The notes under the pieces are model-generated. The model searched no databases and had not been told where the DNA came from. It was given only the letters and a program-made list of their open reading frames with translations. Position numbers and translations under genes: made by a program. From positions 124,001-188,000 of the forward strand of contig NZ_CP132294.1 of assembly GCF_030734285.1 (NCBI RefSeq): 64,000 bases of DNA, given 5' to 3'. Origin of the DNA: Natronococcus sp. AD-5 (GTDB lineage Archaea; Halobacteriota; Halobacteria; Halobacteriales; Natrialbaceae). Positions 22,189-22,752 of the stretch are shown here, in pieces; the stretch's first letter is position 1, and the number at the start of each line of letters is the position of its first letter.

Positions 22189-22659
22189 TCACAGCCCCTC
22201 GAGCGACCGTAACTTCTGTTCGACCGGCGGCGGCGCGGCGCTCGGACCGTCGCGAACGCGGTGGTCGGGGATGAGGATCGGGGCCGGGTTGTCGTCCAGC
22301 GCCGTTCGCACCAGGTTCACGTCCTCGTCGTCGTCGGGATCGAGGTCGGGCGTCATCCGGGCGAGGGTGCGGACGTCGACCTGGTCGCCGTAGGGGATCT
22401 CTCGGACCTGCTCTAACACCGACCGCTGATCGGTCGGCATCGTCAGCGCGACCTGAACGTCGTCGAATTCGATCTCCTCGAGGCCGTCGAGGTACTCGAA
22501 GATCCGCTCGAGCACGGGGTGGTCGGCCTCGGCGTCCGGCTCCGGCGTGTCCGGAAACGTGACGCGCAGCACCCGTCCGCTCGCGACCCCGAGCTGGACG
22601 TACCGGTCGAGGTACGACGACTCCTGCGCGTAGATGCCAGCGTCCGTGACCTCGTCCAT
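22189..22659 (-). CDS. Alkyltransferase-like protein (MGMT family, no acceptor Cys)
   Basis: ATG 22659 gives 156 residues ([12 protein letters not shown]). The C-terminal half follows the O6-alkylguanine-DNA alkyltransferase pattern: IPYGDQVDV (helix-turn-helix region), the arginine-finger position ([12 protein letters not shown]118) and then [13 protein letters not shown]. The invariant PCHR active site reads P131-D132-H133-R134, so the alkyl-accepting cysteine is aspartate. Proteins of this kind (ATLs) bind alkylated DNA without repairing it and pass lesions to excision repair in other organisms. It is divergent from trpC across a 96-bp gap. I read the codon as GAC directly. Confidence 0.82.
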
Positions 22660-22720: not shown

Positions 22721-22752
22721 GTCTTATGTACATAACAGTACGTCGATGTACA
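22721..22752 (+). promoter_or_regulatory. trpC promoter with twin TGTACA boxes
   Basis: TGTACA occurs at 22727-22732 and again at 22747-22752, 20 bp apart (two helical turns). The first overlaps the TATA-like CTTATGTA (22723-22730) and the second lies at the expected transcription start, just before the ATG at 22756. Each box is itself a palindrome. This is a typical position for a repressor of trp genes; the binding factor is unknown. Confidence 0.5.

What the first reader, a model, noticed from the sequence alone, without database searches (positions are those of the whole stretch)
22189..22659. MGMT-family protein with PDHR instead of PCHR
The codon for the alkyl-acceptor cysteine is GAC (Asp132), while the following His-Arg and the arginine finger are kept. 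It cannot repair by the classical mechanism and is probably an alkyltransferase-like lesion-recognition protein. Known ATLs usually have Trp or Ala at this place, so Asp is noteworthy.
Basis: partly seen in the sequence, partly recalled or inferred. Interest (0 to 1): 0.5.

Follow-up and report, generated by a model that had tools for sequence, protein, structure and literature searches.

The report
Haloarchaeal MGMT relative lacking its cysteine
The salt-loving archaea sampled almost all carry a relative of the DNA repair enzyme MGMT whose reactive cysteine has mostly become aspartate and whose DNA-gripping parts have also changed, so an old repair enzyme seems to have been kept for a new, still unknown job.

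Summary
The gene is on the minus strand at 22189-22659 (156 aa); codon 22264-22266 is GAC (Asp132) in ILIPDHRV. It is no sequencing error. A relative is found in 390 of 391 sampled class genomes. Of 112 aligned family rows, 103 have Asp, 6 Ser, 1 Thr and 2 Cys; 20 of 20 canonical Ogt rows have Cys. The Cys forms lie in the sister branch of the rest, one of them near the same lon/nadM genes, so the cysteine was probably ancestral and lost. The host genome has a separate canonical Ogt; 39 of 116 sampled genomes do.
The arginine finger is not kept: its place is Asn115, with Arg118 one turn later. The base-flipping Tyr is Val96, the active-site loop is shorter, and the five recognition-helix positions changed in a DNA-binding-dead engineered SsOGT are all substituted. 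Asn hinge, His, Arg and Glu are invariant in 105 rows. Four of five tested ATL criteria fail. Best reading: an alkyltransferase-dead MGMT derivative under purifying selection with a changed role; function untested.

The parts
22189..22659 (-). MGMT-family gene without acceptor Cys (156 aa plus stop), protein P0001
   Evidence: Translation; PF01035 29.6 bits; a relative in 390 of 391 class genomes
22264..22266 (-). GAC, Asp132, at the place of the alkyl-acceptor Cys (C145 human, C119 SsOGT)
   Evidence: Asp in 103 of 112 family rows
22372..22374 (-). Val96 at the place of the base-flipping Tyr (Y114 human)
   Evidence: Tyr in 0 of 96 Asp rows, 4 of 4 deep rows, 20 of 20 Ogt rows
22291..22329 (-). 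Recognition helix 111-123 ([13 protein letters not shown]): Asn115 at the arginine-finger place, Arg118 at the conserved Gly, acidic end
   Evidence: helix 111-122 in the model
22225..22251 (-). Shortened active-site loop (residues 137-145, DGPSAAPPP) replacing the canonical G-[YF] loop
   Evidence: His-to-Glu span 21-22 residues in 96 Asp rows, 26 in the 4 deep rows, 25-31 in 20 Ogt rows
22198..22200 (-). Glu154, at the place of the triad Glu (E172 human)
   Evidence: 105 of 105 family rows and 20 of 20 Ogt rows
22450..22659 (-). N-terminal region (residues 1-70), including the AGIY motif with invariant Gly8
   Evidence: Aligns with the Ogt N-terminal region from residue 13; G8 in 105 of 105

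Best explanation
A haloarchaea-wide orthologous branch of archaeal MGMT that has become alkyltransferase-dead. Shown by alignment: the acceptor Cys is replaced (mostly Asp, some Ser/Thr), with Cys forms in the sister branch; the base-flipping Tyr, the finger Arg, the helix glycine, most basic residues of the minor-groove helix and the long active-site loop are lost, while the Asn hinge, Pro-x-His-Arg, the distal Glu and the N-terminal region are kept under purifying selection. Inferred: the fold is kept as a scaffold, with Asp132 filling the old thiol site in a His133/Glu154 hydrogen-bond network, and the protein no longer flips or senses O6-alkylguanine in duplex DNA in the MGMT/ATL way. It most likely acts by binding another partner (protein, RNA or small ligand) and is neither an MGMT nor an ATL.
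For: Residue table of 125 distinct rows: Tyr in 0 of 96 Asp rows against 20 of 20 Ogts; finger Arg in 7 of 96 against 12 of 12 non-haloarchaeal Ogts; the conserved helix Gly is Arg in 84 of 96 against Gly in 20 of 20; mean helix-region net charge -2.6 against +2.6 (non-haloarchaeal Ogts); His-to-Glu span 21-22 against 25-31 residues. The five helix positions that differ between SsOGT (4zyg) and the engineered tag (6ga0) (S-A, R-A, G-K, M-T, K-E) are D113, N115, R118, T119 and D123 here; papers state that five HTH mutations abolish DNA binding (passages of PMC4605297, and PMC7216122). Haloarchaeal canonical Ogts keep Tyr and Gly at these places (8 of 8 each), which argues against mere salt adaptation. 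Tree without the acid-site column: family one clade (98), split 4 (2 Cys, 2 Ser) against 101 (96 Asp, 4 Ser, 1 Thr). Gene order: lon or trpC found in 27 of 32 named and 15 of 20 unnamed loci, including three of the four deep rows. dN/dS 0.035-0.215 in 14 Asp pairs, 0.237 and 0.272 in two Ser pairs. C-terminal fold: VIA-align Z 11.5 to M. tuberculosis OGT 4bhc, 76 residues, rmsd 1.7 A.
Against: No biochemical data. DNA binding could have been rebuilt with other residues: Arg118 (84 of 96) could be a shifted finger, and haloarchaeal proteins meet DNA in molar salt with unusual surface charge (recalled). Haloarchaeal canonical Ogts also lack the finger Arg (7 of 8 have Val), so that loss alone says little. 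The model's N-terminal half has low confidence, so the pocket could not be examined. The partner and function are unidentified.
Confidence: 0.58

Rival explanations
1. An ATL-like lesion-recognition protein that arose independently: it binds O6-alkylguanine without repairing it and hands the lesion to UvrABC.
For: No acceptor Cys, PxHRV kept, HTH fold kept (S. pombe ATL 3gva Z 8.3, 75 residues, 2.6 A). UvrA in the genome at 1382 bits. 77 of 116 sampled genomes show no canonical second PF01035 match and might need another route.
Against: Tyr, finger Arg, basic helix residues and active-site loop are lost; Asn hinge and N-terminal region are kept, the reverse of ATLs. The family is present in genomes with and without canonical Ogt. 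An acid in the pocket suits a hydrophobic O6-alkyl group poorly (inference).
Confidence: 0.24
2. A true enzyme in which Asp132, with His133 and Glu154, is a carboxylate nucleophile or base, giving a hydrolase or self-regenerating dealkylase.
For: Asp132 in 96 of 105 distinct family rows; H133, R134, N124 and E154 in 105 of 105. An Asp-His-acid triad is used by haloalkane dehalogenases (recalled).
Against: 7 of 105 distinct rows have Ser or Thr, with at least 6 changes of state on the tree. ATL-type chains 2kif and 3gva keep the distal Glu with Trp at the Cys place, so its invariance proves no catalysis. Tyr and long loop are lost.
Confidence: 0.07
3. A decaying remnant without function.
For: Cys and several DNA-binding residues are lost; in two of 30 re-searched genomes (G316, G389) the gene matches in two pieces in different frames.
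Against: Present in 390 of 391 genomes, dN/dS 0.035-0.272 in 16 pairs, 10 of 156 positions identical in 105 of 105 rows.
Confidence: 0.02

Closest known systems
Canonical archaeal MGMT/Ogt (SsOGT, 4zye; human AGT, 1t38)
   Same: Two-part layout, C-terminal HTH fold, Asn hinge, PxHR(V/I), distal Glu
   Different: No acceptor Cys, Tyr, finger Arg, helix glycine or long active-site loop
Alkyltransferase-like proteins (S. pombe Atl1 3gva; Vibrio protein 2kif)
   Same: Acceptor Cys replaced; C-terminal fold; distal Glu kept
   Different: Asp not Trp; N-terminal region and Asn hinge present; Tyr and finger Arg absent
Engineered non-DNA-binding AGTs (SNAP-tag; SsOGT-H5, which 6ga0 appears to be)
   Same: The same five recognition-helix positions are substituted; SNAP-tag chains 3kzz and 3kzy are among the best, though weak, phmmer hits of P0001 (E 0.014-0.019)
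   Different: The tags keep the reactive Cys and their transfer activity

Membership tests
MGMT/Ogt (O6-alkylguanine-DNA alkyltransferase) | Acceptor Cys in PCHR | tested here: not met
   Asp132
MGMT/Ogt (O6-alkylguanine-DNA alkyltransferase) | Pfam PF01035 above gathering score | tested here: met
   29.6 against 27 bits
MGMT/Ogt (O6-alkylguanine-DNA alkyltransferase) | NCBIfam TIGR00589 ogt above cut-off | tested here: not met
   21.2 against 46.4 bits
MGMT/Ogt (O6-alkylguanine-DNA alkyltransferase) | Arginine finger and base-flipping Tyr | tested here: not met
   N115 and V96
MGMT/Ogt (O6-alkylguanine-DNA alkyltransferase) | Asn hinge, His, distal Glu | tested here: met
   105 of 105 rows each
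MGMT/Ogt (O6-alkylguanine-DNA alkyltransferase) | Irreversible alkyl transfer | not testable with these tools
   needs biochemistry
ATL | No acceptor Cys | tested here: met
ATL | Trp (in most ATLs) at the Cys place | tested here: not met
   Asp; 0 Trp in 112 family rows
ATL | Arginine finger and Tyr conserved | tested here: not met
   N115 and V96; criterion from PMC10779285
ATL | No N-terminal domain | tested here: not met
   N-terminal region aligns with Ogt from residue 13
ATL | Asn hinge missing | tested here: not met
   N124 in 105 of 105
ATL | High-affinity O6-alkylguanine binding and UvrA/UvrC contact | not testable with these tools
   only the presence of a UvrA gene was seen

The most novel reading that the evidence does not exclude
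MGMT, the textbook suicide repair protein, was turned in haloarchaea into a regenerating carboxylate enzyme: Asp132-His133-Glu154 attacks an alkyl group or ester, forms an Asp ester and hydrolyses it, as in haloalkane dehalogenases, on a substrate that is no longer duplex DNA.
Probability: 0.06. Interest if true: 0.85.

Novelty: new variant of a known kind. Interest (0 to 1): 0.5.

Why it matters
About two thirds of the haloarchaea sampled show no canonical Ogt (77 of 116), yet 390 of 391 keep a member of this family, which in 110 of the 112 rows examined lacks the cysteine. Annotation as MGMT family (recalled) may credit these archaea with a repair activity that they lack. The family also offers a natural series of Cys, Ser, Thr and Asp forms with loss of the DNA-lesion apparatus. 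It makes two questions testable: what an MGMT fold does without its cysteine and its usual DNA contacts, and how haloarchaea without Ogt handle O6-alkylguanine.

Tried and rejected
Sequencing error: rejected, since relatives share Asp with two synonymous codons. Membership in ATL: rejected, four of the five tested features not met (see table). Arginine finger kept: rejected by two alignments. Loss of helix charge as mere salt adaptation: only partly rejected, because canonical haloarchaeal Ogts keep Tyr and the helix Gly (8 of 8 each) but have mostly lost the finger Arg too and are less basic there (-0.2). Distal Glu as proof of catalysis: rejected by the ATL control (in 2kif the motif reads PWFR, so even the His is not fixed there). 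First structure model (mean pLDDT 49.4) was of no use; the second (mean 59.6) is confident only at about residues 81-140, so the pocket was not analysed. Foldseek gave no match under E 0.001 (best 1.1e-3, an AGT). Viral contigs: two stretches matched the one pattern used, none encoded a relative. A second weak match in G012 looks unrelated.

Literature: ten full-text searches brought no description of this protein that I noticed in the listings: 'haloarchaea' + 'MGMT' 0 papers, 'HVO_0785' 0 (the locus tag is a recalled guess), 'C145D' 3 unrelated, 'haloarchaea' + 'methylated-DNA' 1 unrelated. Of the papers I saw one section and passages of PMC10779285, passages only of PMC4605297, PMC7216122, PMC7776575, PMC7690668 and PMC10117719, and listings of the rest. 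The H. volcanii repair review PMC7776575 holds 0 occurrences of 'alkyltransferase', 'Ogt', 'MGMT' and 'methylguanine'. Only open-licence papers were searchable.

Rows dropped before counts: L002 and L005 (the window gene itself), L003, L004 and the 13-kb loci L097-L116 (copies of rows already in); five identical and three partial rows (L086, L091, L156). In one search's printed tally P0001 was misfiled as an outgroup 'D'; I corrected this (103 = 102 + 1). Some species occur twice among the 112 rows, because two collections were used.

Full report
OBSERVATION. The frame at 22189-22659 is on the minus strand: 156 codons plus stop, ATG at 22659, GAC for Asp132 at 22266-22264. PF01035 matches residues 78-135 at 29.6 bits against a cut-off of 27, covering profile positions 3-55 of 81; the curated ogt model is far below its cut-off. 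The nearest named relatives are Natronococcus (N. pandeyae 90%), so the window is probably from that genus (inference).

DISTRIBUTION. A P0001 relative is found in 390 of 391 sampled genomes of the class; the one miss (G339) is 88% complete. The twelve non-haloarchaeal hits that I fetched are PCHR Ogts, 12 of 12 with Cys. The family seems confined to the class, as far as this sample goes.

RESIDUE AT THE ACCEPTOR. Of 112 family rows, 103 have Asp, 6 Ser, 1 Thr and 2 Cys (with P0001 moved to its own group). Asp is encoded by GAC 77 times and GAT 25 times among the other 102. The two Cys rows (L094 from G021, L095 from G286) and two Ser rows (L092, L096) also keep the Tyr and the longer active-site loop. 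A maximum-likelihood tree of 125 distinct rows puts the 105 family rows in one clade (100/98) with these four as sister (100/92) to the other 101 (100/98). Leaving out the trait's own column gives the same split, family support 98; whether Ser came before Asp is unresolved there. The tool counts at least 6 changes of state. The tree has long branches, and its bootstrap had not fully settled.

ORTHOLOGY BY GENE ORDER. In the window the order is nadM, lon, a CPBP-type membrane protein, a small membrane protein, this gene (reverse), trpC, trpB, trpA, then an aldolase-like gene that I read as an ADTH synthase (names recalled from the translations, not tested). The same neighbours recur: trpC in 21 of 32 named and 12 of 20 unnamed loci, lon in 25 of 32 and 11 of 20; lon or trpC in 27 of 32 and 15 of 20 (loci are cut at about 10-13 kb and some at contig ends). 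Three deep loci, one with Cys (L115) and two with Ser (L113, L116), also lie near nadM and lon. So these Cys, Ser and Asp forms are very probably the same gene. The other Cys locus (L114) shows none of these neighbours, so its orthology rests on the tree.

WHAT ELSE CHANGED. Mapping by profile-profile alignment (probability 99.9) and PDB alignments, with the table. Base-flipping Tyr: V/L/T/I/A in 96 of 96 Asp rows, Tyr in 4 of 4 deep rows and 20 of 20 Ogt rows. Arginine finger: Arg in 7 of 96 Asp rows and 12 of 12 non-haloarchaeal Ogts, but in only 1 of 8 haloarchaeal canonical Ogts, which otherwise have Val. Helix glycine: Arg in 84 of 96 Asp rows and 4 of 4 deep rows, Gly in 20 of 20 Ogts. 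His-to-Glu span: 21-22 residues in Asp rows, 26 in deep rows, 25-31 in Ogts. Kept in 105 of 105: G8, T73, R79, L121, N124, P125, P127, H133, R134, E154, of which G8 and T73 are not conserved in the Ogts. Mean net charge of region 111-125: -2.6 in Asp rows, -3.5 deep, -0.2 haloarchaeal Ogts, +2.6 other Ogts.

A TELLING PARALLEL. One search prints both SsOGT (4zyg: SPRAVGMALSKNP) and an engineered tag (6ga0: APAAVKTALSENP). In this helix they differ at five places; with a further Ser-to-Glu in the loop this fits the review's description of SsOGT-H5 (five HTH mutations plus S132E), whose HTH mutations abolish DNA binding while transfer activity stays (PMC7216122 passages; PMC4605297 passages). 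That 6ga0 is H5 is my inference. In P0001 ([13 protein letters not shown]) all five places are substituted, one identically (Thr) and two with like charge (Arg for Lys, Asp for Glu). SNAP-tag chains are among the best, though weak, PDB sequence hits of P0001 (3kzz E 0.014, 3kzy E 0.019). Much of the change is already present in the deep forms, two of which have Cys, which suggests that the DNA contact changed before the cysteine went (inference).

FUNCTIONAL SETTING. The host genome has one canonical Ogt (100.1 bits; TYGEL...PCHRVV...GYAGG) and a UvrA (1382 bits). In 116 class genomes, 39 have a strong second PF01035 match (one of them, G054, is a fragment) and 77 do not; in those 77 the only match is weak (E 3.6e-13 or weaker) or, in G052, missing, except in G021, whose strong match is the Cys form of this family itself. 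The family is thus not a companion of Ogt. Selection is purifying: dN/dS 0.035-0.272 in 16 pairs that I chose.

STRUCTURE. The better model (mean pLDDT 59.6) is confident only at about residues 81-140. Its C-terminal domain aligns with AGTs (Z 11.5, 76 residues, 1.7 A, 4bhc) and less well with ATL (3gva Z 8.3, 75 residues, 2.6 A); Foldseek's own best E is 1.1e-3. A shared fold does not decide function.

MECHANISM. Shown: loss of the acceptor and of most residues used for flipping and holding an alkylated base. Inferred: no alkyl transfer, no MGMT/ATL-type lesion reading, a retained scaffold with a new partner. The Glu control matters: ATL-type chains 2kif and 3gva keep the terminal Glu, so the invariant His-Glu set does not prove catalysis, though it does not exclude it.

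VERDICT. It is a new variant of a known kind, ordinary among haloarchaea, and not described in what my ten paper searches listed.

Noticed in passing
window 22727-22732 and 22747-22752, upstream of trpC: Two TGTACA palindromes 20 bases apart, of only six in 64 kb; they resemble the TRP box of the archaeal regulator TrpY (recalled). They lie in the 96 bases between this gene and trpC if trpC starts at ATG 22756; an in-frame ATG about 30 bases upstream leaves that start unsure.
   Followed up: no
L001 1483-1875 and L149-L155: Haloarchaeal canonical Ogts have mostly lost the arginine finger: Val in 7 of 8 distinct rows, with Cys, Tyr and the helix Gly kept in 8 of 8.
   Followed up: partly
116 sampled genomes of the class: 77 of 116 show no strong second PF01035 match, hence no canonical Ogt by this search; how they repair O6-alkylguanine is unexplained.
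   Followed up: partly
G316:C1:2691330-2691781 and G389:C37:21084-21475: The orthologue matches in two pieces in different frames: frameshift, local decay or assembly fault.
   Followed up: no
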